Positions 2,741 through 36,098 of a DNA stretch of 64,000 nucleotides are shown piece by piece. This DNA comes from Grifola frondosa (taxonomy: Eukaryota > Basidiomycota > Agaricomycetes > Polyporales > Grifolaceae): positions 434,001 through 498,000 of the forward strand of contig LUGG01000032.1 of the NCBI GenBank assembly GCA_001683735.1, written 5' to 3'. Under the pieces are notes generated by a model. That model did not search any database. It had not been told where the DNA came from and saw only the letters and a list, made by a program, of their open reading frames with translations. The first letter of the stretch is position 1. Each line of letters begins with the position of its first letter. The position numbers were made by a program, and so were the translations under genes.

Positions 2741-2749
2741 ATGGCATGG

Positions 2750-7549: not shown

Positions 7550-9388
<1,839 letters not shown>

Positions 9389-10052: not shown

Positions 10053-10129
10053 AACGATCTCTAGAGGGTATATGAGAAGAAAAGGGTATTCGAGGAAAAA
10101 TGAGGGTATAGCGTTAAACATCGGATACG

Positions 10130-11390: not shown

Positions 11391-11397
11391 GCACCAT

Positions 11398-13965
11398 GTC
11401 AACTCGTTCTATAGGCAGCGAATTCTCATTGCCTACTCTCGATAAATTGCATGCCTCTGTACCAACAGACATATCTCCCAGTGATATTGCCGCTAAGTGG
11501 TTACGCCAGCTCTCAGATACTCTCAAAGCTAGTGATAGCAATTCCTTCACCGAGATGTTCCTCGAAGATGCCTTCTGGAGGGATATTCTCGCACTCAGCT
11601 GGGACTACAGGTCGATCCGCGGTACCACCGCCATCCGATCTTTCTTCGATGCTCGTGCCATGCCCAGTGGTCTTTCCATTTTGAACGTCGCCGAGGATCA
11701 ATTCCGTGCTCCTATCTTAAGCAGCCCTTTTCCCGATGTCTCCTGGATCCAGTTTGGCTTTGATTTACAGACTTCGGCAGGGAAAGGGCTTGGGTATGCG
11801 CGCCTCGTTCCGACAGAAAATGGCAAGTGGAAGGCTTTCACTCTGCTAACCACCCTGGAATCTCTCAATGGCGTCATCGAGAAGGTCAGTGCACTCTTCA
11901 TTATCTTGTTATGTTGCTTGAGTTCACTTCCATATCTTGCAGGGTCCTAATCCGGATTCCTCTTGGCTATCGCAAGATCGCCATGCCGACAAGGTAGAAT
12001 CCTCTACTGCAGATCCTATAGTCCTCGTAGTGGGAGCAGGGCATAGCGGATTAGAAGTCGCTGCTCGTCTCGAAAGATTTAATATTCCGACCTTGGTCGT
12101 GGAGAAGTTTCCTCGGGTAGGAGATAACGTACGTATGTCCATAGTTAAATACGGTCATCTCATATGCGATGGCCTAGTGGCGAAATCGCTACAAGTCTCT
12201 ATACTTACACGACCCCCGCTGTGAGTTCGCAAATTCTGTTATTGTCCGCTCCATCACTTACCATTAGATAGGGTACAATCGACTCCCGCTCATTCCGTGA
12301 GTGCTTTCCGACACACTTCCTCGGTCCATGTATATAATACACACTGACAATGCATCAGACATCCTCCAGAGTGGCCTATGTACGCACCAAGTGCGAAGGT
12401 GCGTGAAAATAATCTGTCGAAGGAGTGTCTAACTCATCATTGAGTAAAGGTAGCAGACTGGCTGGAGGCCTATGCCCAGTCTTTGCAGCTGAACGTTTGG
12501 CCGTCATCCAACATCACTAGAGCGCAATGGGATGATACAGATAAGAAATGGACAGTTTCGATCGCTTGTGATGACGGCACAGATCGTTCCCTCCGAGTGA
12601 AGTATATCGTGTTCGCGAACGGTTTTGGCGGAGGCGTGCCAAGCGTACCGGACGTACCCGGTCAGGTGGGGTTTTATATGCCTCATAGCCGACATAGCTC
12701 TGATGTACTGCAAAGGACTCGTTTCTTGGAGAGATTGTGCACTCGTCCGCTTTCCGCTCTGCGGAAGATTATCTCGGCAAAAGAGTTCTAGTCGTAGGGT
12801 CTGGCAACTCCGGTAAGCGATTCCATGACGCTTATAACACCCTTGACGAGTACCGTCTTTTATAGGCCATGATATTGCTCAGGATCTTGCAATGCATGAC
12901 ATTGATGTTACCATGTATGTACCCGCTCAGAATCCACTCGACAAGACCTGACTCCCGAGATTTAGGTATCAACGATCCTCTACGTACGTTATCTCAATCA
13001 AGGCAATCTCAGTTATGCTTTCAAGTACGTATCGCTCTCATGTTTTCCCCACAAACTGAAGTTCGTCATACGTAACATGCAGGCTTGTACTACGAGGGAG
13101 GTCCGCCCATCGACGTGGCGGACCATCTCAGTGCGGCCTCTCCTTTCCCCATGGCAGAGATGATCTACCAGCGTCTCATCCCACATTTTGCGTCAACCAT
13201 CGATAAGTACGTTTCCTCTCCGACATTCGCCCATTACATGCTGACACTGCAATGACGTAGAGAATTGCTCCAAAAGCTCAAGTCTGCGGGCTTTGGCCTG
13301 AATATGGGCCTGAACGGCGCGGGAGCTTTATCGTGCTACCTTCGGAAGGGCGGCGGGTACTACATTGGTGTGCTACACACACTATGTATTTTGTGTCGTA
13401 TTTATGCTTTGCAGATGTGGGCGCAAGCACACTCATTTCGGAAGGGAAAATACGCTTGAAGACCGGCGCGGAGATCAAGGAAATCATACCTCGGGGCGTT
13501 CGATTTACGGACGGCGCGGAGGTTGAAGCAGATACGATCGTCTTCGCTACCGGGTAATATCACATTGTTATGCCGACGAGCGGAACGAACGATGCTAATA
13601 TGGTGTATAGGTTTGGAGATTCGCGCGATCTTGCGAGGAGAGTATGTGGCGCCGACGTCGCGGCCAAGTTGTCTCCCGTGTGGGGTCTTGATGATGAAGG
13701 CGAGCTGCAGAGTGTCTGGCGAGACTCGGGACATCCAGGACTGTTCTTCGCAACCGGTGAGTCTGCTGCACGATGCAAACGACCATACTTAATGATCACC
13801 GGGCATAGGCAATTTCGCGATATCTCGACAATTCTCCAAGTATTTGGCCCTTCGTGAGTAATAAATTATCTTCTTGTTGGTGCCACCTTAAACGCATAAT
13901 CAGAAATCAAAGCTCAGGAGGAGGGTGTCTTTGGACCGCTCTATAGCCTTCATAAACATGCCTAG
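11398..13965 (+). CDS. FAD-dependent monooxygenase (FMO-like) with N-terminal NTF2-like domain
   Basis: Predicted flavoprotein oxidising a small substrate with NAD(P)H and O2; the substrate is unknown. The start is at 11398 (MSTRSIGSEFSLPTLDKLHA). Residues 1 to about 160 resemble the SnoaL/NTF2-like domain found in fungal FMO-like enzymes. After the first intron the FAD-binding motif is VVGAGHSGLEVAARL. Later come PPEWPMYAPSAK, FLGEIVHSSAF (FMO-type F-x-G-x-x-x-H) and the NAD(P)H-binding motif VVGSGNSGHDIAQDL. Then follow YEGGPPIDVADH, GASTLISEGKI and VFATG. The last exon ends HKHA-stop at 13963-13965. About a dozen short introns all splice in frame, so the gene looks intact. The first exon and part of the first intron are duplicated at 31795-32336. 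It sits next to the peroxidase gene in the same orientation; a shared pathway is only a guess. Confidence 0.85.
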
Positions 13966-14489: not shown

Positions 14490-15850
14490 TCGTCAATGAA
14501 CGGCGGCAACCGATCATTTGACATGCTGCGGTTCCCATTGTGAAGTTTACCTAAAACATTTCCCGCCACATAGGGTGGCCGTGGCCTTGCCACTGGCGGT
14601 ATAAATTTCCAGCGTTGTCTCGTAAGTCACTATTCTCCGCAACCACTCTTCTCACTGCATCGCAAGCCCTTCTCACAATTTGCTCCACTTTCCGAGCTCT
14701 GCGATAATGAACACATGCGGCCCCTCTCCTCTGACTACCTGTGCGCCACTCTACCCCGCTCATGGCACTGGACCTCAGTACCTCCGCATCCTGTGCTCAT
14801 TCCCTATGAGAGCACAAGTGACATGGATCACCAGTGACCGACAAGCTGAAGGATCCGCAGCCTAGCGATCGCTTCGTCTTCTTCTGTAAATTTCCTTCCG
14901 TGACATACGTTTAGGCTTCAAACTCATTTTTCGCAATTCAGACTCTGGGCATTCGGACCGGGTCCCCACTAAATCCATCAGCGAGGACGACGGTATGAAC
15001 GAAGGTAAGTACCGCGGTCAACTCGATGCCTTTGAACTCCCTGACGTTACCTCCGTAGCCATCCTTTGGATGATGATGGACTGGTCCGGAAAAGCATCAC
15101 AAGTTAATCGTAGACAATGCAAAGCCCTGTAGTCGGCCTTCCCTTACCGAGTAAGCTGTATGTTGCCTTCCATTTATGATCGCACACGCCACTAACGTGC
15201 ATGTCGTAGATGGCTCTCATCCCGAGCCTCATTGGACTCAAGCGACTCGAGCGCCTTCGAGTATCAGAGCCTCCCTTCGCGTGCCCGTGGTGCCTACCGA
15301 AACTTCCGCTGAAATTTAGGTGGCTGTATGTGGGTGGCCCTCCGCGTAGTTCAGATTCAGAGCTCCGCAATGCCCCAAAGCATCCTTGTATCAGCATATC
15401 CTTCACGCTTTCCGATACACCTATGTCTACTAGTCGTGGCGTCCGCTGTCGCCACCGACAACCCTACTCGACTCATCCCACTCCCCGATCCACTTCCATA
15501 CTACACCCCCACATGCTTTTCCACTCCCATGGTTGCCATATATTCCACATCCTAATCCAACTCCATATAATGTGGAGGTTGGAGGGCCTTCGGCGGGCTC
15601 GATATTCAATGGTTGACCAACATTCTCAATTTGGGCAGCTGTCCCACATTCCTACATCTCTGCCGCGATGTGGATGGGGTCGGACCTTCGGATGAAGTAC
15701 CCGAATTCGGATTCTTGATGATTTGGAGAAGTGACCGCACTGGAATTCGTAGCCCGTACTGACGCGTCCTCGCCTGCTACCCCCACGCGTCCGCAGTATT
15801 TTATAAGCGAAAATATGTTGTGTAAATAGTTTAAATAGATGTACATTCAT
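14490..15850 (+). pseudogene. SADYLCA-leader module A, degenerate
   Basis: Upstream box GGCAACCGATCATTTG (about 14505-14520), TATA box TATAAA at 14600-14605, and an ATG at 14715 opening MRPLSSDYLCATLPRS, the diverged form of the leader in modules B-F. Downstream there are several acceptor/donor-like sites (for example GAAG|GTAAGT near 15005) and proline-rich frames such as NPTRLIPLPDPLPYYTP around 15460-15510. No single frame stays open through the splice sites I can see. The shared 3' motif occurs as GTGTAAATAGTTTAAATAG at 15820-15838. I see no HMG box. It is probably a decayed paralogue. Confidence 0.5.
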
Positions 15851-15974
15851 GGAATGGACATATAACTTGGAATAATTGTTTGAGATATGTTCCACGTTGA
15901 GTCAGGCTCTATGACAACCGGTTAGTCAGTGGTTCCTTGACGAATCCGGTAAGTCAAACATCTCCAAACGTCCC

Positions 15975-16140
15975 TCGATGCGTGCCATGTGTAAGCCCAT
16001 CCTTCCCTCATCCTCGATGCCCCGAACTAATCCTCCCTTGTCTCCCTTTGCCACCTCTCAGAGCTGCATGAAGTGCGCGTCGGTCTTGGCGGTATTCGTC
16101 GTGGAATGAAGTTTCGCGTCGGTGCTCCATACGACTGCGA
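15975..16140 (+). pseudogene. Exon-intron fragment related to module E
   Basis: This piece, starting CGTCCCTCGATGCGTGCC, closely matches the end of exon 1, the intron (GTAAGC...CTCAG, with CTAAT before the acceptor) and exon 2 of module E at about 30560-30755 on the other strand. Exon 2 reads LHEVRVGLGGIRRGMKFRVG here and LHEVCVSLGGICCGMEFRTG in E. It has no leader of its own, so it is a broken duplicate. Confidence 0.5.
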
Positions 16141-16479
16141 CGGAGATGTATGATCGTCCGAAGCGCTCATCTAAAATCCAACCCATCTCGCGATCATGTC
16201 CGCGACCGACAATGCTCGAATTATGTACCCCCCATGTAGCGATCTGAACATAGCACAACTCGCCGAATTGTTTATTCAAACCTCTTTCGCACACACTTAT
16301 AATGTACGCCAACGTCCGCCTCGCACAAAGCAAAATGAGCTCTAGATGAGCTCCTCCTATATGCACCGTGAACAGTGCAGGCTCACGAACGCTTCCCGAC
16401 AGCATCTATGGGCAAATTCCCTCTCGAAAAACATACGCATTTCGAGAGTAAAAGGTGTAGACTCGCTGCCTCCAGACAT

Positions 16480-17910
16480 CTCTCGCCGACGCTAACGATC
16501 GGCCGCAATCATTCTCTATGGTGAGTTTGCAGTCGTCACTTGTGCACGAAGGCTAAAACATATATCACATGCATCCCGCAATTGGGATTGGCGATACTGA
16601 CATACCACAGAATCCGTGCGCGTGAATTATCGCAACGTTGAGACACGCGCAAAGAAATTTGCATTGCAGCGTTCGATCACGCGTGGCCACCTTGTTCATG
16701 GGCTTTGCATCTTTGCCCGTCTCCTTTGCATTATCCGCGCTTTGTGGCTCACATTCGATCGCGTGTGGTGACTTACCTATATAAATCCCGGCTCTCATCC
16801 TGATCCCTCCCCATCCCTCCTCATATTCTCCTTCATACAACCGCACCGAAAACAGATCCATTCCACAACATGACACACATACTCATTCCTACCCTGCATC
16901 CTGCTGACTACCTGTGTGCCATCTCTTTCCATCTCTGCCCACTCGTGAGTGTCACCCCGCCTACATCTCATTATCACTCACGTCCCCGTGTCACAGCGAC
17001 GTGTGTGCATTTTCCGGTGCTGATACCATCCACACGGATTCGCGCGCACACGTACTTCCCGAGTCTGCGCACGAAGCGGGTGGGCCGTCATATAGCGCAA
17101 AATTGGATGCGTACCGAACAACTTGGGCTTCCGGGATGCACGCCGGACTCGGAATGTACGTCTCTCCCCTCATTCCCATCCTCCTCCTCCTCCCTCACCT
17201 TACACCTCCCAGTCCATCTTCCTCCACATCCTCGAGTGATCAGCGGGGCCGGTCATCCACTGTGCGCGTTCTCCCCAAACACGACGCTGCACACGCGCGC
17301 ACATCGCGGAAGCTGGCTAGTTAGCCACCGGCCACGCGTTTGGGCATGCGGTTGGCGGAAGCAAGCTACCGGAATAACGTTCTCACCTGCTAAATTTTTC
17401 GTTCGAAGGCTGTGGCCTCCCCTCTGATGTTTCTCACCGTGATGTCCTTTTTCCGGCCTTCCAACCGGGCACAATTGACATCACACAAACGGTGCCGCCA
17501 AACGATCCGACTCCCAACGCAACAGCCCACCCGCTCTATCCTCCGCTCCCGCGCATTCCGGTACTGCAGACGTCCTATCGCCCCAAGCTGCGCATCCGGT
17601 GCCGCTGAATAGCTTCATCTTATTTCGACACCACTTCGACCCGATGGCGGGGGAGAGAAGCAAGGGCAGGTGTGGGCAGTCCAATATCAAGAACACAATA
17701 GCACACACCCATCTCTATGCCAATTCGCAACCCCCTCCGCGCCGAGTCTCATCTCACATCCAGTCATGGGCCCGGTGTGACCGGTGCGCGTGCCGACAGG
17801 ACTCCCGAATTCGGGCAATATCCAGCAGCCACATAAGCATATTCTTATCTTCGTGTTCCGTGTGCGCGACCTGTATTCATGTGTAGCATACATAGTTAAA
17901 AAGATGTATG
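16480..17910 (+). CDS. SADYLCA-leader module B with HMG-box segment
   Basis: TATATAAA at 16778-16785 lies 85-92 nt before the ATG at 16870, which opens MTHILIPTLHPADYLCAIS. A 52-nt intron (GTGAGT...TCACAG) follows, then exon-like frames. From about 17492 an S/P-rich segment leads into HPVPLNSFILFRHHF and later NIKNTIA. This matches the first half of a fungal MATA-type HMG box (consensus R-P-P/L-N-S-F-I-L-F/Y-R). The second half of the box is not recognisable and may lie across an intron or be lost. The shared 3' motif is at 17881-17905. If expressed it would be a nuclear DNA-binding protein, but frame continuity between leader and box is not proven. Confidence 0.5.
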
Positions 17911-17959
17911 CGCACGAAACTGCAGACGTACCTTTCCATAAATAAATTATCTGTCCGAC

Positions 17960-19130
17960 ATCATCCTTATTGAATGCCACTTGTACAAACAAACGTTCGA
18001 GCCTGCATATTGAAGGATCCATGAATAGCCCACACCTCTGTGCAAGATACGGAGTGCTCTCCAACGTAAGATGCCTTACGCCCGAGCTCTATTCGTCCGC
18101 AACACATGGCAGCCTTTCGCCGCGCAAAGTATAGAGAATGGCCGCGAACGAAAGTGCAGCGTAGAGCGGGCCACCAGGAGTGCAGCGACGGAGGACATAA
18201 TGGTCGAGGTTCCAAGCTTCAAGGCGCAGACCCGGGGCGAGCCAACCATGAGCATATCCGCACGTATGGCCGACTTGGCGATTGACTTGGACGATTGACT
18301 TACGCATGCATCTTGCGCTCTACTAGTTGGTACTCCGCCAGCAACGACTCTAAGAGCGACTCGTCCCAGAGAGCGGTCCCCCAAGGTAGGTCAATGTAGA
18401 TTGACATGCTGCACAGGTCCATCTTGTCCAAGTCCACCTCCAAGGCCCGGCCGTCCGCGGACCTACCTCGCCCCTTTGACAAGCACCCTTAGCAGCCCAG
18501 CTTGCACAAAGGCCGAGGACGCGCCGTTGTCATACACACCCATTTTTAAGGGATTTCCGGAATCAATGAGAAGAGCACAGTACTAGTAAGATAGACTTAG
18601 CACAATCGCTGCCCATGGTGGACGAGGACAAGTCGGAAGTCAAACGGTCAGCCAAATACACGGTCATGTGATCACAACGCGACTCAGACGCGTCCTATGT
18701 TTGTCGTTCGACTTACGCGTCATTCCCGTTCTTGCATTTTGTCCTTCAAATCTACTTCAACTACCGATATTGGGCGAACACCAATGCAGCTTACGGTGTA
18801 CAATGAGGCAGAAATCCGAGATTCTTTGGCGAATCAAGTAAGCCGCACCTTTCCAAATCATGCTATAACTCTGGTTAAACCGGACCTCCGACTGTCTTTG
18901 CAAACATTACGGACTAGTCATAAATTGCATGGAGGTGAATATACATAATATAATTTTTATGATCCTTAGGCGTTAGGTAATGGTTAACAGCCAGTTCGAT
19001 TCGAACGCATGCTCCCAGCCTTTCGCTCCGCTCGGTGTCCGATTTCATGGCATAGAACGACCGTAATTGTCCACCGTTTCTGCGGTACACAAAGCTCTTA
19101 ATTAGAGTGGGTCTCGAATGTCTGAATTGA
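17960..19130. other. Region between modules B and C, unresolved frames
   Basis: Two short overlapping frames run on opposite strands: + near 18071-18298, ending MSISARMADLAIDLDD, and - near 18300-18482, with DLDKMDLCSMSIYIDLPWG. Both are acidic at the end, and neither has a recognised domain or clear splice partners. I cannot say whether either is expressed. Confidence 0.3.
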
Positions 19131-19154
19131 CATAATCTTCTTTATACAGAAATA

Positions 19155-19980
19155 ATGGCAACCGATCATTCATTGTACGTGGCACATTTTTGCTTTTCTT
19201 CATTCTTTGTCGCGTTTTGCGTGGCCAACGTGGTAACTCCCGGGGCACATTATGGACGCATCACAATGGCATTCAAGGTATATAAACCCCGCAAGTCCTC
19301 TATCTCCCAACTCTCCAGCCCGCCTCCCATCTCACACTTCAGCACTAAACCAAAGAATCCCCCCAAACACATTTTCTGACCGCTCTCTCCGCGCCATGAC
19401 TCACATACACATTTATACACCCCATTCTGCTGACCACCTGTGTGCCATAGGTCGCACGCACCTGAGTACGTCGCGCCCTCTATTCACTATGCTGACCCGA
19501 AATGACCATACTCGAACATCCAGGGTAGCCGTATTATCCTCCCATTTGCCGGCCTACCGCGCACACCTAGGAAGGCCACGACTAAGAACGCCGCTTCCTG
19601 GCGCTTCTAAATTCCTCGGTCACCAAACCCGTTCTTCATTTACCGAAGCGCGGTCCTACCGGACTTGGCGGCCGTCGAGCCAGACAACCGCATAAAGTCA
19701 AAAATTGTCGGACAACTATGGAAGAAGATGTCTGCCCATGAGATGGAGTCGTGGAACAAGAAGGGCGATACCAGCCTGCGCAGAGCGGCGAAAGTCGAAG
19801 AGGAATGGCCCGGAAGGAGCGGCGCTGCGACTACACATTGTCGAGCCCCCCTCCCCCCCCCCCCATTCAGGGCTACAAGGGAGAAGACCTTGTTGTACGT
19901 GAGGGAATTCCACGGGAGCGTGATGCAACTGAATTCTTCTTTCTGATTTGATATGTACATGTACGTAGTTAAAAGAGCGT
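19155..19980 (+). pseudogene. SADYLCA-leader module C with HMG-box segment, interrupted
   Basis: Upstream box GGCAACCGATCATTCA (about 19156-19171), TATATAAA at 19279-19286, and ATG at 19396 opening MTHIHIYTPHSADHLCAIG. Near 19612-19790 one frame reads IPRSPNPFFIYRSAVLPD, then DNRIKSKIVGQLWKKMS and HEMESWNKK. These are the start, middle helix and C-terminal helix of a MATA-type HMG box. A TAA lies in that frame just before I-P-R, and the leader frame differs, so at least one splice or frameshift is required. A C9-C10 run at about 19852-19863 follows. The shared 3' motif lies at 19951-19977. Confidence 0.55.
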
Positions 19981-20409
19981 CCATGTACGAAAGAGGGCAT
20001 ACGTATCCTCAAAATGACATAAATTGTACACACGGTGCGAACTCGGGGTGGCGACATAGACGGCGCACATCATGATCTACGTCCGCGGTTCAGGCCGAGG
20101 GACCATGGTCACGTTGGAGTGTGCAATGCGACATTGTGCAGGATAGTCTACACACGAGCGTACAGTGTGCTCGACGTGCTGGGGGATTTGAATCGATGCG
20201 CTTGATGAGTGGCACTTCGCCATACACATGGGATCTACGTGAGTGTCCTCTACGATCCTCAAAAAAAATATTCGATTTGTGGTAACCATATCGATATTCT
20301 TCCGCGTCCATCGTCTTGGAGAAACTGTCGTCCGAGTAGCTGTTTCCAGTCAATTTTGCATCCTTGCGCCCGAAGGAATAGCGATCTGTGCGTGAATGTT
20401 GTTTGTGCG

Positions 20410-21260
20410 CGGTGAATTTTAACTACGTACACGACATCATAACAAAAACTAAAACGAATGGTATATCTGTTCTGCAGAAAAACGCGTCAAATCTATGGGG
20501 TTGATTGGGTGGGGGTAAGGTATGTGGTTGAGAATGTGCCCAGAGCGCGTGACGGTATACTATCCGGGCGCAAAATGCTTCGTGGACAACAGTAACATAT
20601 TCTTCAACAAAATCCTTGCCTCAGGCCACCAGGTGAGTATCCAGCTTGCATAGATCAAGCGAAAGATGCACCGACGGCATATGAAAGTCGCCGTGCGAGG
20701 CATACGCGCTCGCCGTCCCCGCATGCAGCTCGCTATTTTTCTTCTCGTTCTTGCATTCCGTCAGCTGCATGCGACGGAGGGGACACCTGCATGATGGTCG
20801 ATGAGCGTGCCGTGTCTCTTGCATACATATCGGAAAAAAGGAAAGTACGCACGCACTGTACCGCGCTAGATGAGCGGATATAAGGATGTTCGTCTTTCCG
20901 CATGCGGGAATTCCTACGAACACGCGCCGCTCGGAAGAAAACACTCAACATGGGATGGGGTGGCACACAGGTAGTCAGCGGAATGGAGTGGCGAGAAGGC
21001 CGGGTGTGGCATGGTTGGAAACGCAGATGCTTGTGCGAGCGAGTGAACCTCGGGGTTTGGGGTGTGGGCGTGTGCGGAAAGGAGAAAAGAGGGTTGGATG
21101 GTTTTCATCGGTGTTGGGGGTTTATATACGTCGGCTGTGGACTGAGCCATTTGTTTCGCAGCTTTGATTGCCCACGTGATGCAAAACAATGACACACCAA
21201 AGCACGAGAACCTGCGTCTTTGTTTATGGTGCCACGGCTCTTCACACGAATAAACGAATG
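20410..21260 (-). pseudogene. SADYLCA-leader module F
   Basis: Read on minus: TATATAAA (complement of 21121-21128), and ATG at 21012 opening MPHPAFSPLHSADYLCATP, with a stop 17 codons after that motif. A possible 36-nt intron (GTTGAG...TCGTAG) would join the leader to a frame running to 20621, but no HMG box is visible there. The shared 3' motif is the complement of 20417-20438. The module is convergent with C and its promoter faces the unrecognised + gene at 21398. Confidence 0.45.
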
Positions 21261-21397
21261 ACTTGCCCACAATATACAGTTGCCATATGCCATTGTCTGG
21301 CGCTTCCCTATATGCACAACCCTTATCGTGCGCTGAGAACCATCCGCGCTCCTGAAGTGTATCCATGTCTGTGCAACATATGTCCTCGAGCACATGA

Positions 21398-22138
21398 ATG
21401 AATTTGACGAACATGTCCAATGAGGTTAGTATAAGCGAAGATAGACAGAAAAGTAATGCTGACTTGCAAAAACCACCTAGAACCGCTCAAAAGAGTCGCC
21501 TAGAATACCGAAGCCTTATCAAAGTAGATGACAGGCCTGTAGAATCTTGGAATACTGGATCTCCAAAGGGAAAGCGACGGGCAACCGACTCACAATTTGC
21601 ACCTGCTGCTCTCCCGGTAGCCCACCATGAGACCAGGGATGCGGTTCTCTCCAATATAGGACACCAGATTGCACAGTGTGAGGGCTTCTGTTGGAGGACA
21701 CCGCGTACAAGATCGTGGAGGATGTGGGTGGGAACGAGCGCAAGGCCTTCCTCATCATCGAGGCACTCAACATGCAAAATGCTGCGAAATGTTGTAGAGA
21801 CTCGTACCTATGTGCCACATGGCTGACGTTTTGACCACATCTATAACACAGGCCGGAGTTGAGCGCGCTGATGATCACAAAGGCTACAAGGTTGTGGACG
21901 CGATCGTATGCGTGCAGATCCCCGCAAGTACCATGCCAGACGTATGCGCCAAGTTCTACGAGCACTTCACTCGCTGTTGGACTGCATGGATCGTAATCAA
22001 GGTGAATCGCGCGCATGCTTCTGCATAAGCATCGCCTGCGGCTCCCACTAACTGACCGTGCATGTGCAGAGCGTGGCATTCACTCCCGAAGAGCACGTTA
22101 TAAGAATCAGACCATCAGATGAGCTGGACGACGACACA
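21398..22138 (+). CDS. Unrecognised spliced gene with one frameshift
   Basis: The first exon starts at 21398 or 21413 (MSNEVSISEDRQKSNADLQK) and runs to NIGHQIAQCEG. At 21681-21692 the frame moves by one base into LLLEDTAYKIVEDVGG and KAFLIIEALNMQNAAK. After a probable intron ending ACACAG (about 21851), an exon reads AGVERADDHKGYKVVDAIVC and later FYEHFTRCWTAWIVIK. A further intron (GTGAAT...GTGCAG) leads to FTPEEHVIRIRPSDELDDD. Codon usage and splice sites look genuine, but I know no matching family. The single-base jump lies beside a GGG run and may be a consensus error. The gene is transcribed divergently from module F. Confidence 0.5.
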
Positions 22139-22619
22139 CGCCAGATATCGAAAAGGTAAGGATCCACATCTCCGAGGACAGAATGTGTACGAACACATCG
22201 AGCTTAGCGCGGCATTTCAGATGCAGAAATCGAACGAAAGCATAAAGTTTTGAAGTTGTTTTTGGAGAGCGCACTGAGCTGAATTTACAAGTTAAACTCT
22301 GTGTAATCTTGCATAACAAGAGAAGTACCATGCAATCGAGGCCAACCGTCCCGCTGAGCAGAAAATAAGTAAGAAAGTGGTCAGAAGCAAGTCGCAACTG
22401 AACTGAACCGCTTCCCGATCGTCTACCGAACTAGTTCGGATAGCCCTTCCAAATCGGGCAGCTTCTGTCGTTCAGCAGCTGCGCCTCGATGATTGGACTC
22501 GCTCTCCACGTCTCAATTTCTTTCCTATTATGAGTCCACTGGCAATATTTTGCGTATGCGGAATAGCCATCTGGATATGTGCATAATTTTCTTAATTTAT
22601 ATAGCTTTCTGTTTGCGTA

Positions 22620-24170
22620 TGTCTAAGTATTTTAACCACGTACACGACATGTTCATATATTTACATTGTATAGCGGATATCTCTTGCTCCTCATATCTAC
22701 ATCTAAGACACGCAATGCGCCCCAGCGGTCTTCACATCCTAAATTTCATCCATGCCGTTGCCGGTGTCTTCTGGATATCCGCACAGCGTATACTATCCTA
22801 GCGGAGAATTGCTGCACCGAGTTTAACTACTCTAGTTCGAGATATGGCATGGACGCAGACGGTCGGTGCCAGTTCGGGCTCGAACCAACTTGTGGAGTCG
22901 AGTTAAAAATACTGGCCGATAACCATTGCGCTCTGTCAGCCACCACCTCAGACGGAGTTGATCGAGACCGTGCACCGGTTTTTGCGCGCTGTTCTAGAGA
23001 GCAGCACGTGCATGCCAGTGCGAGAGATATCAGACGGTGAATGTATGGTTAATGCTGGAGTATAGAGGTAGTTGTCGAGCCCTGGGTTGAGGCATCGAGG
23101 CTGAAGGTTCGGAGAACGCGTTTTGTCAGGTGTTACTTTCCCTGGTCGAAAATCGGATATACTCCGGGAGACGTTGTCCAACTGAGGTGATGGGCGAGGG
23201 CCAAGGAAAATTGTGCATCATGTCGGCTGCGACCTGAATGGCGGGCCTCGGAGCCAAGTGGCTTCGCTAGGACAAGGGAAGTTCGAGTAAGGCGACTGGA
23301 AGATGAAGAGGCGGCGCCCGAATCCCTGCTCTATACAATTCTTGTATAGTTGGATGACGGGTGATAAATTGTCACGCTTCCTCCACTTGTGAGCTTCTAT
23401 CGGAGAACTGTAGAAGAGCTGCCGTGACCCTTGAATGATATTTCAGCTCGAACTGATGATATGGTATTATTGGAATCGCTTACAAAAGGAGGCTACCGCA
23501 ATGGGCTGTCAATATTTTCCCTTGCTTCACGAGCCATGACAAAACACATGCTATCTGTCCTGAAATAGCAGAAAGCGTGGAAGGAGGATACCATACAAAT
23601 CTAAAGACCATGAATTAGCACGAGAAAACGCCTTCGACCTGAATATGATAGATCGCCTTGCAGCGCAGAATTCGGATACAGCCATCGATAATAAGCACGA
23701 GGTAATGACTCTCACTTACCCATTATCAGCACCTTGTCGGCCGGTAGTGAGCTGTAAGCTCTGTGGAATAACGGGAGGTAAGTGATGGGTGAGATAGACG
23801 GCGAGATGCGAGGGGAGACTTACATGGACAATGCATCCGCTGATCTGGGGAGGTGTTGGCGCACAGGTAGTCAGCAGAGTGTGGTATGGACACGTATATG
23901 TGCGTCATGTATGGAGATGTAGACAAGACATAGTCTGTTTACGATGTGGTGGTGCGAAGGCGAAGATATGGCGAGATTGGGTGAGATGTAGAGCATGAAG
24001 AGCAGACGCTGGGATTTATATAGGGCGAGTCTTCCAACGTAGCGGGGATGAGCTACCGCAGCTACGCGAAAAGTGACAAAGCGCGGAGAATGTAAATCAC
24101 GCACAAAGGTGCCGAACGCACAGACAACAGTGGCCATGTATGATTGACAATCGGTTGCCACGGTCAGACT
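22620..24170 (-). pseudogene. SADYLCA-leader module D
   Basis: Read on minus: GGCAACCGATTGTCAATC near 24140-24160, CGCGCTTTGTCAC near 24073-24085, TATATAAA (complement of 24015-24022), and ATG at 23908 opening MTHIYVSIPHSADYLCANT. A GTAAGT donor follows HCPC, an exon lies between ...CACAG and GTAAGTGAG (about 23720-23762), and a later frame has NPGLDNYLYTPALTIHSPSD near 23020-23100. The shared 3' motif is the complement of 22628-22650. No HMG box is clear, and continuity of one frame is unproven. Confidence 0.45.
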
Positions 24171-24628
24171 GCAATGCAAATTTTCAACGGACATCTCTGG
24201 AGGTGATACACATATAGATGTCTGCGTTGTCTTTTTGTCTGTGCATAAGCGGTACTTGTGGTGACACATTCGAGAACCCCTTTCTTTCCTCGAGACATGG
24301 ATGGCTCACCTTATGCCGTTGCGAGGGACGGCGGCTAATATTTGTATAACAGCACTGCAGAAAATGAATGCCTACAGAGCAAGAGGGTTGGATGAATGGA
24401 TTACTTAGTAATCTTGAAGTTGAACTTAAGGATGCTAAATTTAAACTCAATTCCGATTTGAATCGCGGACCTGATCGCGATCGTCGTATTGGGTTAGGGT
24501 CATGCATTTTTCCTCTGCTTTATTTTTTATGTTGATACGCATTCTTTAAGAGCACACTAATTAATACCTATAGTCTCTACTCGAGGTATGTGAGGATTGG
24601 TATCTGAGAGATACATGTGGCTACTTTT

Positions 24629-25020
24629 GTCACTCGTGTTCTGAACAATTGGTACGAGCCTGTCCTTGTCTTACTGCTGGATACTCATTTGTGAGGCAGA
24701 ATGCAAACGCACACGTTGTTCGCTTCAGATGGTCTAATTCTGACAGGAAACCATTCGATGCAGAATTCCCATATGTTCAGGTCCGACCCACATCTGCGTC
24801 GCCTTCATATCGAGAACTAGACAAGGAAAAGATGGTAGAGCTGGATGTGTTCAGAGAACAAACCAGGTTCATGCACGCCGAAGTCGTCGGCATGGAGAAC
24901 GCGGGCCGGCGCGCATTATCAGGTCCTGCGGCAATATCTGATTCGTAGGTGAACTCAGAGACTGCTGGAGCTGGGACGAGGCAGATGGACGGAGCCTGAG
25001 TGGGAAAACGGGAACGGTAA
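24629..25020. pseudogene. Remnants of module E and gene H homologues
   Basis: On minus, about 24800-24960 matches the 3' coding end of module E: FSMP, then DDFGVHEPGLFS, against DDFGVQDPTLFS in E, with a one-base frame difference. On +, 24629-24735 (GAACAATTGGTACGAGCCT and following) matches 29266-29360 around an intron of gene H. The two remnants therefore come from different family members lying in opposite orientations. Confidence 0.45.
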
Positions 25021-25881
25021 GTCAATATGAGTGCATTACTCGCTTGGTGCTGATGTGCCTATCTCTTCGCTTGGATGGTGCGCGCTACCATCTCTCACCA
25101 TGACATTTTGGGAGCAACGACCCTCTGAGAGGGTTCTTAGACATTGGCTATGCAGAGACTGACAACCGTACTATAGCGTACCACTTGAGACTAGCGCTAT
25201 TGAGTACTACCTTCATTGTATGCTGATCCAGTAGCCTCGCTGTCTATGAGAACCTGGCCCTTTTCTTTGGACATGGCGATTCATTCACAACAGCTGCTCG
25301 ACATGCAATGGATTAAATGGTGAGTCCCCATCCTATATCTTCCACACAGCATCGTTCGGGTTCGTGCAACGCTTCCATCATTCCATTCTCTACTTATTTA
25401 TGCGTCATGAGGTATAACGGCTAGCGATTATATGCGTTGCTTCGATGGACGGGTATTTCGACAGTTGACTTATTGCCTCATGTTACAGGTTACTGCTTAT
25501 TATAGTTACCAACCAAATCCGGACCTATCTTGGCCGCACTAGCTGTCCTTGTTCGAAATTCTGAAGATACGGGCCCGTATGAGACTCGTGATGTCTTTCA
25601 CAGTAGCGGCACAATCTCTCCAAAATGGTATCCCCTTGCCTGCTTGGAGCGAGGCAGGGAAGAAAAGTAGATGCAGGCGCAGGTGTTCGACATGCGATGC
25701 GAGACTCACGCATAAAATGCATAAACGGGGTGATTTATGCACTATGAAATTTCCAAATAGCGATTGATCAATTCCGACACGAAGACAACACATAAGAGGC
25801 GGTACATGTAAAGCGGCGTTTAGAGAAACATTCGATACAGACTTCTACAACGATGCGACAATTTCTCATTGCGTCAACTGT

Positions 25882-26993
25882 TCACCAGTGGCCCATTGTG
25901 ACCTTCGAGGGATCGAAGCCGAACTCAAGCCAAGAGTCAACCCCTTGGACCCCTTGGTCATCGTTCGAGAGACCGACGAAGCCCACGTGTTCGTACACTT
26001 TGGCTGCCGCGGGATTGTTGTGAGCCACGTAGAGGATAACCTTGCTCTTCGTTCTTAGAAGGCTGTAAAAAGACACTATCCAGTCAGACATCAATTAGGG
26101 CATGTAACGGCGAGACATACTACTGGCAAACGTATCGCGTGAGTCGCTCAGCGCACCCTTGCCTCCTCCAATTCGGGTTCGTGAAGACTTTCGTGATGGC
26201 AGCAACGGTCTCAGTCGTCCTCGTGACAGCTACAATTGAAGCTATGTCAGATTGCCCCTCAGGAGTGACTACTTCAAGAACCCAAAGTTGTCCTGCACGT
26301 ATTAAATGAGTAGCTTCCCGGGTAGCTTGGTCCTCAGTTAGAGTGAAGGGTTTCTGTGTGTGACATCAACACAAAATTGGACATGATCCGGTAAGTTTTA
26401 CTCACGGCACTGGCAGCAAACATACAGCACAACGTGGCAGCCGCGGAAATATCTGCACTACCCGCGAGACGCAGGCCACGGGTATCCGGGTGTCCGGTTT
26501 CGGGCTTCAAAGACTGCATGGTGCAGTATGTGAGCTTGGCATGGTAGTACACGTGAGTACGCTTGATTCCGGTGATAAGAGTCCACGTGTTTGCAAACGT
26601 CTCTGTTACAAGATCCACTGCAAAAACCGAGAAGACGCGGTTCTGCGGAACGCAGTCTTTGAGCGCATTGACCAAGCCATTGATCCTAGGCGTACAAAAT
26701 TCTAGATCCAGCCGGTGCGGAGCATGGGGCGTGAATATGAAAATGGGATATGTACCAAGGTGGCCGTTGGTGCACGACAACACAAAGTCGACAGAGAGAG
26801 GAAGCTCGAGCGACTCGCGTGAAAAACATGCGATCCAAAATTGTTGGGAGGAAGCGGTTTGATCAACATTATTCAACGCTTTCATTGCATGCGGGTACAT
26901 TATGTTCGACTTATCAGGATGCGCGCAGAATGCGTCCCACACGAGGCGAGGTATATCCTTGGCAGACGAGTAAGTCTCGATGGAGTATAACAT
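25882..26993 (-). CDS. GNAT-family N-acetyltransferase
   Basis: Predicted acetyl-CoA-dependent acyltransferase; the substrate is unknown. The start at 26993 (MLYSIETYSSAKDIPRLVWD) lies 80-90 nt after a TATATA box near 27075. The first exon runs to about 26407 (FAVDLVTETFANTWTLITGI is internal). Intron 1 is GTGAGT...CACACAG. Exon 2 has KPFTLTEDQATREATHLIRA, then WVLEV and VFTNPNWRRQGCAERLTRYV. The latter is GNAT motif A with R-R-x-G-x-A, the pyrophosphate-binding loop. Intron 2 is GTATGT...TTACAG. The last exon has LYVAHNNPAAAKVYEHVGF, the motif-B region, and ends TMGHW-stop. All junctions splice in frame, so the gene looks intact, unlike most neighbours in the spacer. It is not duplicated in the arms. 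An upstream in-frame ATG at 27068 lies too near the TATA box. Confidence 0.75.
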
Positions 26994-27293
26994 GATGGAT
27001 ATGTGAGAGGCTGCTTGAGGAAGAGTGAAATATGCAATGAGCTGTTGGCATGTCCGGAAGTCTTCCAACCAAGCCTATATATGCATGGAGGATTGTTTGC
27101 CGCAATGAATTCCCAACACTGTTTGGCAGGAAAGTGTGGCGAGGCTTACCGAAAGAAAATTTGGCCTCGTTAAATGACATCTTCCAGTAGAATCGCCACC
27201 TGCACAAGAGCAACTGACAAGGAACAGATGTTGGTTGCCACAAGCGGAAGTCGACTGTACTGAGAGGCATTAGCCTCCAATACAAAATGTCAC

Positions 27294-27835
27294 TTAGCGG
27301 CTTAAACCATTATCAAATGGTGCATATCCAGCTGACGCCTCAAGCCGACCATTGAAAGCCCATGCATAAGCTTCGGGGCGTAGATCGCCGAGCGTTAATT
27401 TAGTCGCCCACTCGACAGTACCTGTAAGGTCCTTTCCACATACAAAATCGGCGGTTATGGTATGATTTAATGATAAAAATACGGCAGGGTGAGCACGGAT
27501 TTGGTGAACCACCATCTTATGGACTGAACGAACCATATGGTCCATGCGGGAGTAACGTTGTTCTGAAACACGATTATAATGCCAGTCGAACGCAATGCAT
27601 GAGCAAATCATCGTTCTCACTTCTGCACTAGAAACATCCGATGGCTGCAGCCGTATCTTGTGCAGCTTGTGTAAGTTGAAGACATTGTTCCGCACCTGTG
27701 TCGTTCAATGAACATGCTAAGAATGTGACTAGCATACAGCTGATATTGGACCGTCATAACCAATTCTATTCTGGTGAAGCGCAAATAGATCAGTACTTTG
27801 TGACAGTGGCAATGGACAAAAGAATACATAACTTT
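27294..27835 (-). CDS. Unrecognised gene fragment upstream of GNAT gene
   Basis: An exon-like frame (27294 to about 27695) follows a CACAG acceptor and contains HKIRLQPSDVSSAEVR, FDWHYNRVSEQRYSRMDHMV and TVEWATKLTLGDLRPEAYAW, then a stop. A possible earlier exon lies at 27710-27829. It has no recognised domain, signal or membrane segment. It is on the same strand as the GNAT gene about 300 bp upstream and may be a separate gene or an old relic. Confidence 0.35.
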
Positions 27836-28244
27836 CTGGATCCCGGCATCGCAGTCGGTGCTCCTTCAACGTGAAAGCCGATGAAGCTCTCTGTTCAAAT
27901 TTAGCCCAAACGAAGCTTCACGTAGTAGAACATTGTTTTTGGAAGCACTTTCAACCACGGATCGCCTCGACACTTACCATGTCAGCTACGGCGTTCGCGT
28001 TGACGCAGGCTCCTACCCCCTGCGACTCGCGCTAGCGACATAGTAGCGCCAACCAACCGATATTCAAATTTCAAACCCCAACTCTATTTTGCCCCGAGGG
28101 CACAAAATATGTGTAAACAAACGCCACCTCGGCCGGAGGCCTCCTACCTTTTTCGACAATATTCATTCTCGGTCATTGAGGCAAAATAAGAATCTGGAGT
28201 TCGAAACGGTTCAGGATTCGAATAAACTAGTCTCGGAACCAGCC

Positions 28245-28876
28245 GTTCTCTCCCTTCGGACCCCAATCGGACATCGAAAAACACCAGCACAGAGAGGGAG
28301 AGAACGTCTGGTGAATTTGGTATAGGCGGGGGGGGATGGTCACATTCACGTGCCTTAAGACGCGCTCTACGCGTCGCGTCGCGCACGGCCGCATGTCATT
28401 TTGATGCGTGTACTCTCCGAATTGGCTCTTAATATTAATGAAAAAAAATTTCCTAACCATATTTTTGTCATGTATATTGGTCTGAGACAGATTCTGCCTC
28501 ATCTCGTCATAATTTGTTATCATCCCAGTACTTACTCTCATACATTGGTAGATGCTGACTAAGCATTGGTAGTACGGAGACCGGGGCACTTTTGATATGT
28601 TTAACAGCGTCGGACAGACCTCTTGGCTCTTTCAACTCATAGGGTGATCACTCGGTTGAGTTTTGTGGTATTTGGCCGTGCATACATAGCCTATCTCGAG
28701 CGTCGTTGAGAGCGATCTGACGCGGTCGGTCACAAAGCGTGACCATCCCCCCCCGCCTATACCAAAGTCACCAGACGTTATAGGTGGTAGTTGTGCTGGG
28801 GTTTTTTCGATGTCCGATTGGTTCTGCGCCGGACTCTTCCGGTGGCGCAGCCGCCGTGCACAACTACCACTATAAC
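28245..28876. repeat. Inverted pair of fold-back elements
   Basis: Unit 1 has arms GTTCTCTCCCTT (28245-28256) and AGAGGGAGAGAAC (28293-28305). Unit 2 has arms GTTATAGGTGGTAGTTGTGC (28777-28796) and GCACAACTACCACTATAAC (28858-28876). Both contain AATCGGACATCGAAAA (in opposite orientation) and abut the same flank, ACGTCTGGTGA..TTTGGTATAGGC, followed by an 8-9 base G run. The whole is thus an inverted repeat of about 90 bp around a 375-bp loop. Confidence 0.6.
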
Positions 28877-29057
28877 GGCTGGTTACGAGACTACGAATAA
28901 ACGTTCGCGGCGCTACGGTGGCGCTAGGCCATTCGTGAATCGGGGCGCTCGTCATGGTGGGTGAGGGTCTGCGTATCTTAGTTCTAACGTCTGCGTCTCT
29001 TCAGCTGACGCTTACATATATCAGCCGCAAACTCTGCACTCTTGCTATGCCTCCATC

Positions 29058-29390
29058 ATGCTCTCCTCTACCTCCTCCGCTCGACGTTGTGAGCTACTGC
29101 TGGTTATCCCCGTGTTTGCGGCGGTCACCTCTATCGTGTGGCTCTTTGCGACCACTTTCCTTCATACTCAAGAAGCTCCTATCCGCGATAGCCGCAATCT
29201 ACGCCGGTCGGTAGGGCATGCATTCCATTTAACTCCGAGAGGTTCCAGTTCTGCACATCACTCATTTTCCGAACGATCGGTACGAGCCTAATCTTCCTTA
29301 CAACTAGATATACATATGCGATGCAGGATGTGAAGGTGTTCGCTATTCGCTTCAGAGCACATGCAGTCCGGTTCTGATCACTTGCGAGGT
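29058..29390 (+). CDS. Unrecognised short membrane-anchored protein (gene H)
   Basis: A TATATCA box precedes the ATG at 29058 by about 45 nt. The frame opens MLSSTSSARRCELLLVIPVF and continues with one hydrophobic segment of about 23 residues (L-L-L-V-I-P-V-F to A-T-T-F-L), then a basic S/R/H-rich tail. A donor (GTACGA, 29280) and acceptor (GATGCAG, about 29329) give a last exon DVKVFAIRFRAHAVRF-stop. The intron and its flanks are repeated at 24629-24735. It may be a signal-anchored peptide or a relic of a larger gene; the family is unknown. Confidence 0.4.
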
Positions 29391-29759
29391 TACCTTCGGT
29401 GCCGAGGCCGTCTCCGGCGTGCTTGATCGATTGTTCACTATGCATGGAGGTCCACGAGGCGCGGGCCTTCAAAGTCAGGTTCGGTGCCCCACAGGAAATT
29501 GGCTGTTGGTTCTCGCTCTCGACGGGGCTGTTTCATTAGAATGTCGGTGCCGTGCTTGGCCTGGTTCCTCGTGGGTTCGAACATATCGGCCTTGTGGATT
29601 CATTGGACGTGCATATTCGATATCTGAGCACCACTGTTCCTACCGTGCAGTTGGGCCTGATCCGTACAGCTGTTACCAAAATGACAATCGGCAGGTGGCA
29701 GTACGCTGGTCAGAACTAATTAATGAGTTTATCTATAAGAATTTCTGCCAATTTTATGT

Positions 29760-31080
29760 ATGCACATCTTTTTAACTATGTACACTACACATTCGTTGTA
29801 TAATACTGCAGCACTCGATGCCGTGATATCCCTCGTTTGTATAAACTCTAATGCTTGTCTATTCCCGCCCGTGCGCGTGACCTTCCATGGTGCCGAGCAT
29901 AAGTGCGTGTTGGCCGACTAGGGAGCGCCACTCTATACCGAGTGACTGGATAAGGAAAAGACAATAGGACTGGATATGTCTATAGAGAACAAAGTAGGGT
30001 CCTGCACGCCGAAGTCGTCGTCACAAGGCATGGAGAAAGTGAGATGCTGACGCGTCGGGATCGTGAACGCGTATCCGCCTGCTGAAGTCCACGAACTCTC
30101 CGCCGCGCTCGCATCTTCATCGGAGTTGAATGGAGGTGGGAGTGAATTGCCGGGGCTGTGCGTTGTGGGTCTGTGCTTGGACACCGGTTCGGATGGACTC
30201 GCATAATCTATGAGGGTATCACTAGGGGAGCCATCGAAAGGACCAAGCTTGAAAGGGTGCCAGACAACATCCTCGCGCTCGGAGATCGCGAAGGGCTCAG
30301 ATAACGAACGCAGGTTGGGGCGGGTACGCCAGTACCCGCGTACCGCTATAAGGTGGTCAATTCGAGTCCATGACGAAGAAGCACGATGTAGATGGCCCGG
30401 CACCCACGATGGATTGGGCCGCACCTCGCGCGGAATATGGTGGCCTATGGTGTGGCGTAAAATGAGCATACTCTCGTAGGCAGGAAGCAGAGACGACGCA
30501 CCATCATAAACGAGTGAGATTGGTACTCAGTTCGGATGCTGGCCGAATTCATCCTATTTTGCACTGCATGTGAGAGATAAAGTGCGGGAAGAGACAAGAG
30601 GAGACGTACCGGCTGCCCGGTGCGAAACTCCATTCCACAACAAATACCGCCCAGACTAACGCACACTTCATGCAGCTCTGAGAAGTGGCAAGGGGAGGGA
30701 CAAAGGAGGATTAGTTTGGGGCATCGAGGACAAGGGAAGGATGGGCTTACACATGGGACGTGTCGAGGGACGTGGGGGATGGATGGCACACAGGTAGTCA
30801 GCAGAACGGAGCGGGTAGGGGAGGATGTGCATCATGATGTGCAGCGAGCAATCAGAAATTGTGCGTGCATGTGGTGGTGTGAGATAGAAGAGCGGATGGA
30901 GAATTGGGGATAAGGAATTGAAGGCTTTATATACGTCGACTGGAGGTGCCATTGTGACGTGGCCATAAAGCACGTCGAGAGCCACTATACCGACCACGCG
31001 TATAATGTGACAAAGCGCAAAGGGTAAAAAAACACAAACGTTCTATGGAGACTAACGATCGGTTGAGCTGACATGAATTT
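29760..31080 (-). CDS. SADYLCA-leader module E
   Basis: Read on minus: CAACCGATCGTTAG near 31060, GCGCTTTGTCACATT near 31010, TATATAAAG (complement of 30925-30933), and ATG at 30835 opening MMHILPYPLRSADYLCAIHP. Introns with GTAAGC..CTCAG, GTACGT..ATGCAG and GTGCGT..ACGAG bound further exons. The last frame (to the stop at 29933) starts MLILRHTIGHHIPREVR and ends DDDFGVQDPTLFS...SSHSV. The S-M-L-I-L-R-H start faintly resembles the beginning of the HMG box in module B, but the rest is too diverged to call. The first splice junction gives a stop in the obvious phase, so the exact model is uncertain. The shared 3' motif is the complement of 29767-29790. This is the longest-open copy. Confidence 0.5.
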
Positions 31081-31794: not shown

Positions 31795-32336
31795 TCGAAC
31801 AATGTGGAAGTGAACTAACATAACAAGATGATAGAGAACGCACTGACCTTCTCGATGACGCCATTGAGAGACTCCAGGGTCGTTAGCAAAGTGAAAGCCT
31901 TCCACTTGCCATTTTCTGTCGGAACCAGGCGCGCATACCCGAGACCTTTCGCTGCGGAAATCTGTAAATCAAAGCCAAACTGGATCCAGGAGACATCGGG
32001 GAAAGGGCTGCTCAAGATAGGAGCACGAAATTGATCCCCGGCGACGTTCAAGACGGAGAGACCACTGATTATAGCCCGAGCATCGAAGAAAGATCGGATG
32101 GCGGTGGTACCGCGGATCGACCTGTAGTCCCAGCTGAATGCGAGAATATCCCTCCAGAAGGCATCTTCGAAGAACATCTCGATGAAGGAGTTGCTGTCAC
32201 CAGCTTTGAGAGCATCTGAGAGCTGGCGTAACTACTTAGCGGCAACATCACTGGGAGATATGTTTGTCGGTACAGAGGCATGCAATTTATCGAGAGTAGG
32301 CAATGAGAATTCGCTGCCTATAGAACGAGTGGACAT
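31795..32336 (-). pseudogene. Monooxygenase 5' fragment with nonsense codon (right copy)
   Basis: This matches exon 1 of the left monooxygenase from the start MSTRSIGSEFSLPTLDKLHA. In the segment A-A-K-W-L-R-Q-L the tryptophan codon TGG has become TAG (about 32228-32233). Matching sequence ends a few dozen bases into the first intron. The FAD and NAD(P)H domains are absent, so this copy cannot make the enzyme. Confidence 0.85.
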
Positions 32337-33502
32337 GGTGCACTTTAGCAAACGAAATGGGGCCAGGAGAGGACGAAGGCAGTTAGAGCAGGAGAGATTA
32401 AGGTTGAGAACGATAGATACGATAGATAGAATAAGGATTACGCCGGGAATAGTGATCATTTTCGAATGTCTCATGCCATATTGAGAACGCACTTCCCCGG
32501 GCCCAAAAGAAGATAGCAGAAGATAGTCAGCTGCCCATTCATTTCCAAGTTCATGCGACTCACCGAGACTACACAACGTAAAGCTTCAGTTTTGTTAGAT
32601 TACCGTGCTATGTGTGTGATCATAAAGAGAAGCATTCCGGCACGTCAACCCAACTGTTAAACCTGAACGTGAATACGAATACCAACCACTGTTTCATGTA
32701 GTCGGTGGTGATAGTAAGGTGTTCGGACCAGCAGGATTCCGTCGGTCAAGTTACACGATCAAGTCGTGCAAAAAAATAGAGTTCGAGCTCCGGCCAATAA
32801 AAGTTAAGCGCCCCAACCTCCGCAGAAGCGGACGCGTCGGGCAACTTATGAAGATTAGAATACGTCCCGTAATCTGCTGCGCAGCGTAGTAATGCCGTTA
32901 ACTGTGAGTCGAGTGGTGCAGCCTCCAAACTTAGGGAAGAGGTGCGTATATCTATTTGAACGAGACCTAAAGTTAAAGTTAAATTTAGCAGTCTCAATAC
33001 TAGATCCACTACGAGCGTGCGCTTCTAAAAGACGGAACATTGGCTGTGATCTGAAAGTAAAGAGACGCAAGTATATCGAAGACAGGTCAAGCACGACAAA
33101 GCAGACCGGTATCCTTCTCGTGCCGCACGCATGGCGCTCTCCATCTCATATTCGTACGTGTCGTATGCTGACACATTTGCTTTGTAGGAAGATCTTGGAT
33201 GATTCATCCCGGAGTAAGAGTTTGCGTGACGGGCTACAGCGGCCTTGAAACTTTTCATTACATGTGGCGCGCCTTATCTGATCTCATTTCCCTCGATATC
33301 TGGTCTGCCTTCAACACGACAATGCTGTCTCACTTGCTGCCAGCGGCAAATTTGGAGTGGCGACCCTCGTGGTGGCGCATGCAGCGCCTCGTGTGATTCA
33401 CGCGTACTTCCAGTATAAAAAGAGGCGTATCCGATGTTTAACGCTATACCCTCATTTCTCCTTGAATACGCTTTTCTTTTCATATACCCTCTAGAGATAG
33501 TT

Positions 33503-33919: not shown

Positions 33920-34156
33920 CTCGCAGTCAGAGGCGGTATAGATGTCTTCGATCTTGTGTGGCTTCCGAGAGGAACGCTATGCCCACTTACCAAGATGGAT
34001 ATATAGGTTACTGACCCCCCAATTCGCGGATCGTTTCACGACAAAAACGCTGGATTGCCAGTATATATTTACAATCATATGAGACTGAAATCTCTCCATT
34101 TATACTCCCAGTATGAACTAAATATGCTCCATGTCTATATTTGATGCATGAACCGT

Positions 34157-36002: not shown

Positions 36003-36098
36003 GGTTATCGAAAGTCGGCTTTTTGAGCAGCTGATTCAGATTGAGACTACGAGGATACTCGTTGAGTACTGCAGACCACTGGCAAACATGCAACACCT

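What the first reader, a model, noticed from the sequence alone, without database searches (positions are those of the whole stretch)
14490..31080. Six-member gene module with shared promoter, SADYLCA leader and 3' motif; two members carry HMG-box segments
Seen: six loci (A 14.5, B 16.5, C 19.2 on +; F 21.2, D 24.1, E 31.0 on -) each have a TATA box 90-115 nt before an ATG and a first exon with the pattern M-x-H..P..S-A-D-Y-L-C-A. Each also has a 3' motif like GTGTACATAGTTAAAAAGA 0.6-1.3 kb downstream. Several also share GGCAACCGATCATT and CGCGCTTTGTCAC upstream. B and C contain recognisable MATA-type HMG-box pieces, from NSFILFRHH to KIVGQLWKKMS. Inference: a lineage-specific cluster of co-regulated HMG-type regulators, or a self-copying gene unit, partly decayed. 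I know of no described family with this leader.
Basis: partly seen in the sequence, partly recalled or inferred. Interest (0 to 1): 0.78.

Follow-up and report, generated by a model that had tools for sequence, protein, structure and literature searches.

The report
Fungal gene family with hairpin-RNA match
Six odd genes on a mushroom chromosome belong to a larger family sharing one kind of on-switch and one 19-letter block, and elsewhere in the same genome a row of four RNA hairpins carries the complement of that block, so the family may be controlled by a small RNA.

Summary
The genome is taken to be Grifola frondosa. The six loci share a TATA box, a leader and (A only weakly) a 3' motif. 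Searches extend the family to 17 loci on contigs C27, C14 and C2, under promoters rich in CTTTGT, the core of HMG-box sites (recalled).

The 'SADYLCA leader' is not mainly a peptide signal. It is a 19-nt block, GCTGACTACCTGTGNGCCA, with little synonymous variation (12 of 141 same-residue codon pairs, against 49 of 106 in flanking codons), and in two loci no in-frame ATG reads it.

On contig C25, under the same kind of promoter, four tandem RNA hairpins (z -10.4) carry the complement of the block in their 5' arms. The genome has Argonaute-like and Dicer-like domains. I favour regulation by a hairpin-derived, miRNA-like RNA (confidence 0.5). No RNA data and no second species were available.

HMG content: only locus C holds a clear, truncated HMG box (87% identical to an intact gene on C1); B is unsupported; A carries a metacaspase-gene fragment. 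'Cluster of HMG regulators' is only partly right. Main rival: a DNA-level cis-element (0.22).

The parts
14600..14748 (+). Locus A: TATA box to block (block 14730-14748)
   Evidence: ATGs in two frames
14847..15117 (+). Locus A body: fragment 78% identical to a metacaspase gene on C36
   Evidence: C36 exon matches metacaspase-1 7qp0 E 1.1e-7; no Pfam hit on three exon pieces
15968..16117 (+). Orphan relic, 88% identical to locus E just after its block (30622-30773); block absent
16778..16921 (+). Locus B: TATA, ATG 16870, block 16903-16921
17888..17901 (+). Locus B 3' motif
19279..19447 (+). Locus C: TATA, ATG 19396, block 19429-19447
19611..19763 (+). Locus C truncated HMG box, near copy of the C1 HMG gene
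19961..19974 (+). Locus C 3' motif
20417..20430 (-). Locus F 3' motif
20961..20979 (-). Locus F block
22630..22643 (-). Locus D 3' motif
23857..23875 (-). Locus D block
24807..24892 (-). Orphan relic, 77% identical to the 3' part of locus E (strand inferred from E)
29770..29783 (-). Locus E 3' motif
29936..30526 (-). Locus E open frame; overlaps public model A0H81_13903; holds a 64-bp match to the 3' part of the C1 HMG gene (29982-30045)
30784..30802 (-). Locus E block

Best explanation
A dispersed, fast-diverging gene family (17 loci here: 10 on C27, 5 on C14, 2 on C2) is transcribed from TATA promoters with CTTTGT sites that an HMG-box factor could bind. Each carries, just after its presumed start, a 19-nt block GCTGACTACCTGTGNGCCA. 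I propose that the block is a base-pairing target. The C25 locus (C25:51845-52445), under the same kind of promoter, would be transcribed into an RNA with four tandem hairpins; Dicer would cut them and the 5' arms (UAUGGCNCACAGGUAGUCAGCA) would guide Argonaute to the family's mRNAs and silence them. Shown by sequence: promoter words, block, hairpins, complementarity, Argonaute-like and Dicer-like domains. Inferred: transcription, dicing, loading, silencing, and its purpose.
For: Block columns 1-18 are 13-14 of 14 except one free column (5 of 14), column 0 is 11 of 14, while flanking columns reach at most 11 and mostly 4-9. Synonymous pairs 12 of 141 in the block, 49 of 106 in flanks. Searches open to any synonymous codons: 7 hits with other codons (4 of 17, 3 of 16); none of the 7 has TATA or CTTTGT upstream. 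c14a and c14b have no in-frame ATG within 80 nt. Hairpins: -241 kcal/mol, z -10.4; 98.1% of 108 cells paired; of 6 varying pairs 2 are compensatory and 2 keep G-U. 5' arms of units 1, 2, 4 match the block's complement exactly, unit 3 with one change mirrored in its other arm; 3' arms carry 2-3 differences. Duplexes with 14 members -27.9 to -44.8 kcal/mol, shuffled means -9.6 to -14.5. Only these units reach 26 of 31 pairs in 132 kb. C25 has the TATATAAACCCCG box and CTTTGT. Piwi-domain matches at 6 places, tandem RNase III domains at 2.
Against: No small-RNA or RNA data; no second species. Members were found by the block, so block conservation is partly ascertained. The compensation test is weak (28 of 500 shuffles reach it; 4 units). 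A 12-15 nt palindrome alone would also fold. 15 of 17 loci keep an in-frame ATG, so a coding constraint exists besides. Coding bodies look decayed, so why the target site persists is not explained by simple silencing. Some Piwi matches contain stops.
Confidence: 0.5

Rival explanations
1. The block is a DNA element downstream of the start site, the binding site of a transcription factor; C25 is an array of palindromic sites and N is an uncontacted base.
For: Sharp 19-bp block with one free base; it stands at a similar distance after TATA in most members; inverted pairs in C25.
Against: Unequal arms in C25 (3' arms carry 2-3 differences), stem pairing extended beyond the block and two G-U-keeping changes; block inside a short reading frame in most members.
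Confidence: 0.22
2. The block encodes part of a conserved short peptide (or regulatory upstream ORF) M..H....SADYLCA in exon 1.
For: 15 of 17 loci have an in-frame ATG within 80 nt, 8 at exactly -33; flanking codons for T, H, S vary synonymously; GTAAG donor at +52 in D, E and m420.
Against: Near absence of synonymous change inside the block; no in-frame ATG in c14a, c14b; complement in C25 hairpins.
Confidence: 0.15
3. Promoter, leader and 3' motif belong to a mobile or gene-capturing unit spreading different gene pieces.
For: Foreign pieces inside members (HMG in C, metacaspase in A) and orphan relics.
Against: DNA searches with A, B, C and m414, m416, start of m420 found no multicopy unit; (F, D, E) found none but did not list even the query's own place, so it is weak; 3' motif absent from c14a, c14b, c2a, c2b, C25. 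Target-site duplications not tested.
Confidence: 0.07

Closest known systems
Fungal microRNA-like (milRNA) hairpin loci (PMC9757828: abstract, section 11 and found passages seen)
   Same: Short stems with a minimal loop, a Dicer/Argonaute-bearing genome, separate transcript-like locus.
   Different: Four tandem units sharing one target block, and a multigene family carrying that block; expression unknown here. The passages I saw say three top-tier milRNAs have strong confirmed targeting.
Nmy/Tmy hpRNA and Dox family of Drosophila simulans (PMC10292708: passages seen)
   Same: A fast-evolving gene family with HMG-box ancestry and a hairpin locus complementary to it.
   Different: Stems here are about 31 positions, matching 19 nt only; HMG box is clear in one locus only; no evidence of drive.
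HMG-box factor regulons with PRE sites (Prf1, ACAAAGGGA; PMC3248468: passages seen)
   Same: Promoters with CTTTGT cores.
   Different: Full element tested on one strand only, 0 of 8 loci.
Intact HMG gene on C1 (P0001, named by its source Silenced mating-type M-specific polypeptide Mc)
   Same: 87% identical over 172 bp to locus C.
   Different: Has a full HMG box; neither the public model nor mine contains the leader.

Membership tests
fungal milRNA locus (C25) | stem-loop precursor | tested here: met
fungal milRNA locus (C25) | small-RNA reads supporting the hairpin | not testable with these tools
   no RNA data held
fungal milRNA locus (C25) | not a known structural RNA | tested here: met
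   one Rfam match at E<=1, mir-214, 21.1 bits against gathering 66.7, opposite strand
fungal milRNA locus (C25) | outside coding sequence and transposons | tested here: inconclusive
   the frame through the units has stops; no annotation seen
fungal milRNA locus (C25) | conserved in other genomes | not testable with these tools
   no other fungal genome held
Dox/Nmy-like hpRNA conflict system | hairpin and target share homology along the gene, not only 19 nt | tested here: not met
   stem flanks do not match member sequence; the 'long homology' criterion is partly recalled
HMG-box (PF00505) gene family | complete HMG box | tested here: not met
   C has profile positions 1-53 of 69; B and E frames none; A, D, F bodies not scanned as whole genes
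transposable element | multicopy unit | tested here: inconclusive
   none; incomplete
transposable element | target-site duplications or terminal repeats | not tested
   -
Prf1/PRE regulon | full ACAAAGGGA element | tested here: inconclusive
   TCCCTTTGT on the sense strand: 0 of 8 loci outside C27; C27 promoters and the other strand not tested

The most novel reading that the evidence does not exclude
A fungal counterpart of plant trans-acting siRNA loci: a hairpin-derived small RNA from C25 triggers on the constant 5' block; the bodies, free to diverge and to hold sense fragments of host genes (an HMG regulator in C, a metacaspase gene in A), give secondary siRNAs that act on those host genes. 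This would explain why coding content decays while the block stays.
Probability: 0.1. Interest if true: 0.92.

Novelty: new variant of a known kind. Interest (0 to 1): 0.7.

Why it matters
Strong proof of targeting exists for few fungal miRNA-like RNAs (passage of PMC9757828). Here one mushroom genome itself predicts guide, target block, a co-regulated target family and machinery, so one small-RNA library, or deletion of one array of about 0.5 kb, would test it. If true, it is a miRNA-like regulon with a multigene target family in a mushroom, and may tie HMG-box regulators to RNA silencing.

Tried and rejected
Peptide-only leader: rejected as sole explanation. A SQVVS..ADYL likeness between c14b and the C25 units: spacing differs by one codon, judged chance. 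The C3:1732971-1733377 tandem array (194-bp unit) as a second hairpin array: z -1.1, 3 of 20 shuffles fold as well. Transposon: no multicopy unit; one search is a weak negative because only 39 of 75 candidates were scored and the query's own place is not listed. Metacaspase reading of the C36 gene: Pfam gave nothing on three exon pieces, PDB sequences gave none for one piece and metacaspases for another. A conserved protein beyond Grifola: P0001's model (E<=1e-6) and the E frame (E<=1) returned one Grifola record each, the B frame nothing at E<=10; the database's fungal coverage is unknown to me. Literature: 7 searches; no listed title concerned this block, family or array; several gave hundreds of papers of which only the top rows were seen.

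Full report
Where it lies. The window is C27:434001-498000 of a 39-Mb genome in 64 contigs. A protein on C1 is recorded as Grifola frondosa on a contig of exactly C1's length, and a model over locus E as Grifola frondosa A0H81_13903 on a contig of C27's length. I take the genome to be that mushroom.

Observation. The six loci align. The 22-mer CTGCTGACTACCTGTGTGCCAT has 5 window hits with <=3 mismatches, 0.00 expected, and 16 genome hits, 0 in the reversed control; 5 of the 16 are in the C25 array. The 3' core GTACRTRGTTAAAA has 6 window hits, 0.06 expected: five after B, C, F, D, E and one (52046) in no member. Of the ten C27 members, eight have it at <=1 mismatch, A at 2, m414 not; c14a, c14b, c2a, c2b and C25 do not.

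The family. Fetched stretches hold ten members on C27 at 414-465 kb (m414, m416, m420, m422, A, B, C, F, D, E), two on C14 (c14a, c14b) and two on C2 (c2a, c2b). A search with <=3 mismatches gave 58 hits, control 16. Of nine further places fetched, three on C14 (540066, 548283, 550887) have ATATAA 139-164 nt before the block and an in-frame ATG, making 17; the other six (C3 x4, C2:172826, C8:673281) are not counted. The other new hits were not fetched.

Promoter. TATA[AT]A stands 76-179 nt before the block in 12 of 14 members (not m414, c2a). In 20 block loci (14 members, three from C14, C25, two C3 loci) CTTTGT occurs 30 times within 400 nt upstream, in 16 of 20, shuffled mean 3.2. On 8 loci outside C27 (7 members and C25; the two C3 loci left out) it occurs 17 times in 8 of 8, shuffled mean 1.6; 8 control loci have none. 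That CTTTGT is the core of HMG-box sites is recalled; the Ustilago PRE ACAAAGGGA (PMC3248468, passages) contains it reversed; the full PRE was not found on the sense strand of those 8.

The block. In 14 members columns 1-18 are 13-14 of 14 except one free column (G5 T5 C4 A0); column 0 is 11 of 14; flanks are mostly 4-9 and at most 11. In the 8 members with the ATG exactly 33 nt before it, 12 of 141 same-residue codon pairs are synonymous in the block (7 from one GAT, 5 at the free column), 49 of 106 outside (Fisher p 9e-12, but pairs are not independent). Members were found by the block, so I also ran two searches open to all synonymous codons: 13 of 17 and 13 of 16 hits are known block loci, all with the family's codons but one GAT and first-codon TCT or ACT; the 4 and 3 others have no TATA or CTTTGT upstream. 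15 of 17 loci have an in-frame ATG within 80 nt; c14a and c14b do not; A has ATGs in two frames. So nucleotides are constrained, with a coding constraint besides.

The hairpins. At C25:51845-52445 the block occurs four times as an inverted repeat, the first 96 nt after TATATAAACCCCG. The stretch folds at -241 kcal/mol, 20 shuffles -179 +/- 6. Each unit is a stem of up to 27 pairs over 31 positions with a 4-nt loop. Among four units 98.1% of 108 cells pair; 21 of 27 pairs never vary; of six that vary two are compensatory, two keep a G-U pair, two break in one unit; 28 of 500 shuffles reach the compensation count, so this control is weak. In 132 kb of fetched sequence only these units reach 26 of 31 pairs; at 25 one window place (44734) does too, and shuffles give 7 hits in 610 kb. 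The 5' arms of units 1, 2 and 4 are exact complements of the block (N read U, C, U); unit 3 (N read G) has one change, mirrored in its other arm; 3' arms differ from the block by 2-3. Counting G-U, each base found at N in the family (G, T, C) pairs with at least one unit. Duplexes with the 14 members run from -27.9 to -44.8 kcal/mol; best of 200 shuffles per member -18.4 to -26.2.

Machinery. Piwi matches lie at six places (C24, C7, C4 twice, C3, C13; some with stops, perhaps introns), and two places (C17, C4) have two RNase III domains in tandem. These are exon-wise domain matches, not gene models.

Bodies. C has a truncated HMG box, 87% identical over 172 bp to the intact C1 HMG gene. E has an open frame with a 64-bp match to the 3' part of that gene; its public model starts after the leader exon by my reading. 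A holds a 78% identical sense fragment of a C36 gene of which one exon matches metacaspases. The B frame gives no Pfam match. For F, D and E the genome DNA search listed no further host gene inside the members, but it scored 39 of 75 candidates and missed its own place. The relic at 15968-16117, 88% identical to E from just after its block, lacks the block: a dead copy has lost what the others keep.

Judgement. Nucleotide constraint on the block and shared promoters are well supported. The link to the C25 hairpins is strong by sequence and untested by experiment. A small-RNA mechanism explains the block's length, the unequal arms and the extended stems; a DNA-binding site explains the block and its free base but not the arms. 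What weighs most against me is the lack of RNA data and of a second species.

Noticed in passing
window 2744-11935 and 31802-40415: Large inverted repeat, pieces 85-89% identical, flanking the module; each arm holds a cullin-like or paralogous frame (Pfam Cullin tested on the left arm only).
   Followed up: partly
window 54921-64000: Tandem array of about 307-bp units, 99.6-100% identical at each shift, running to the window's end.
   Followed up: no
window about 28228-28894: Dispersed repeat of about 670 bp with inverted inner repeats; 29 other copies of at least 530 bp at 90-97% identity listed.
   Followed up: no
window 25775-27885: 2.1-kb stretch between D and E, 76% identical to C1:1881773-1883916.
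   Followed up: no
C8:673281-673299 (L062): Block with one mismatch, carrying the same change as hairpin unit 3, about 16 nt after the stop of an open frame, sense by that frame: a possible 3' UTR target; the gene itself was not identified.
   Followed up: partly
C3:1732971-1733377 (L058): Three tandem copies (194-bp unit) of a block variant GCTGACAACCTGTGGACCA after a TATA box; no hairpin signal.
   Followed up: partly
loci D, E and m420, end of exon 1: GTAAG donor exactly 52 nt after the block start in all three; by eye the splice would make a UAG at the junction, so the leader would be a 28-codon ORF.
   Followed up: no
window 45363-45998 and 53849-54415: Ordinary neighbours: phosphatidylserine decarboxylase and mitochondrial carrier.
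   Followed up: no
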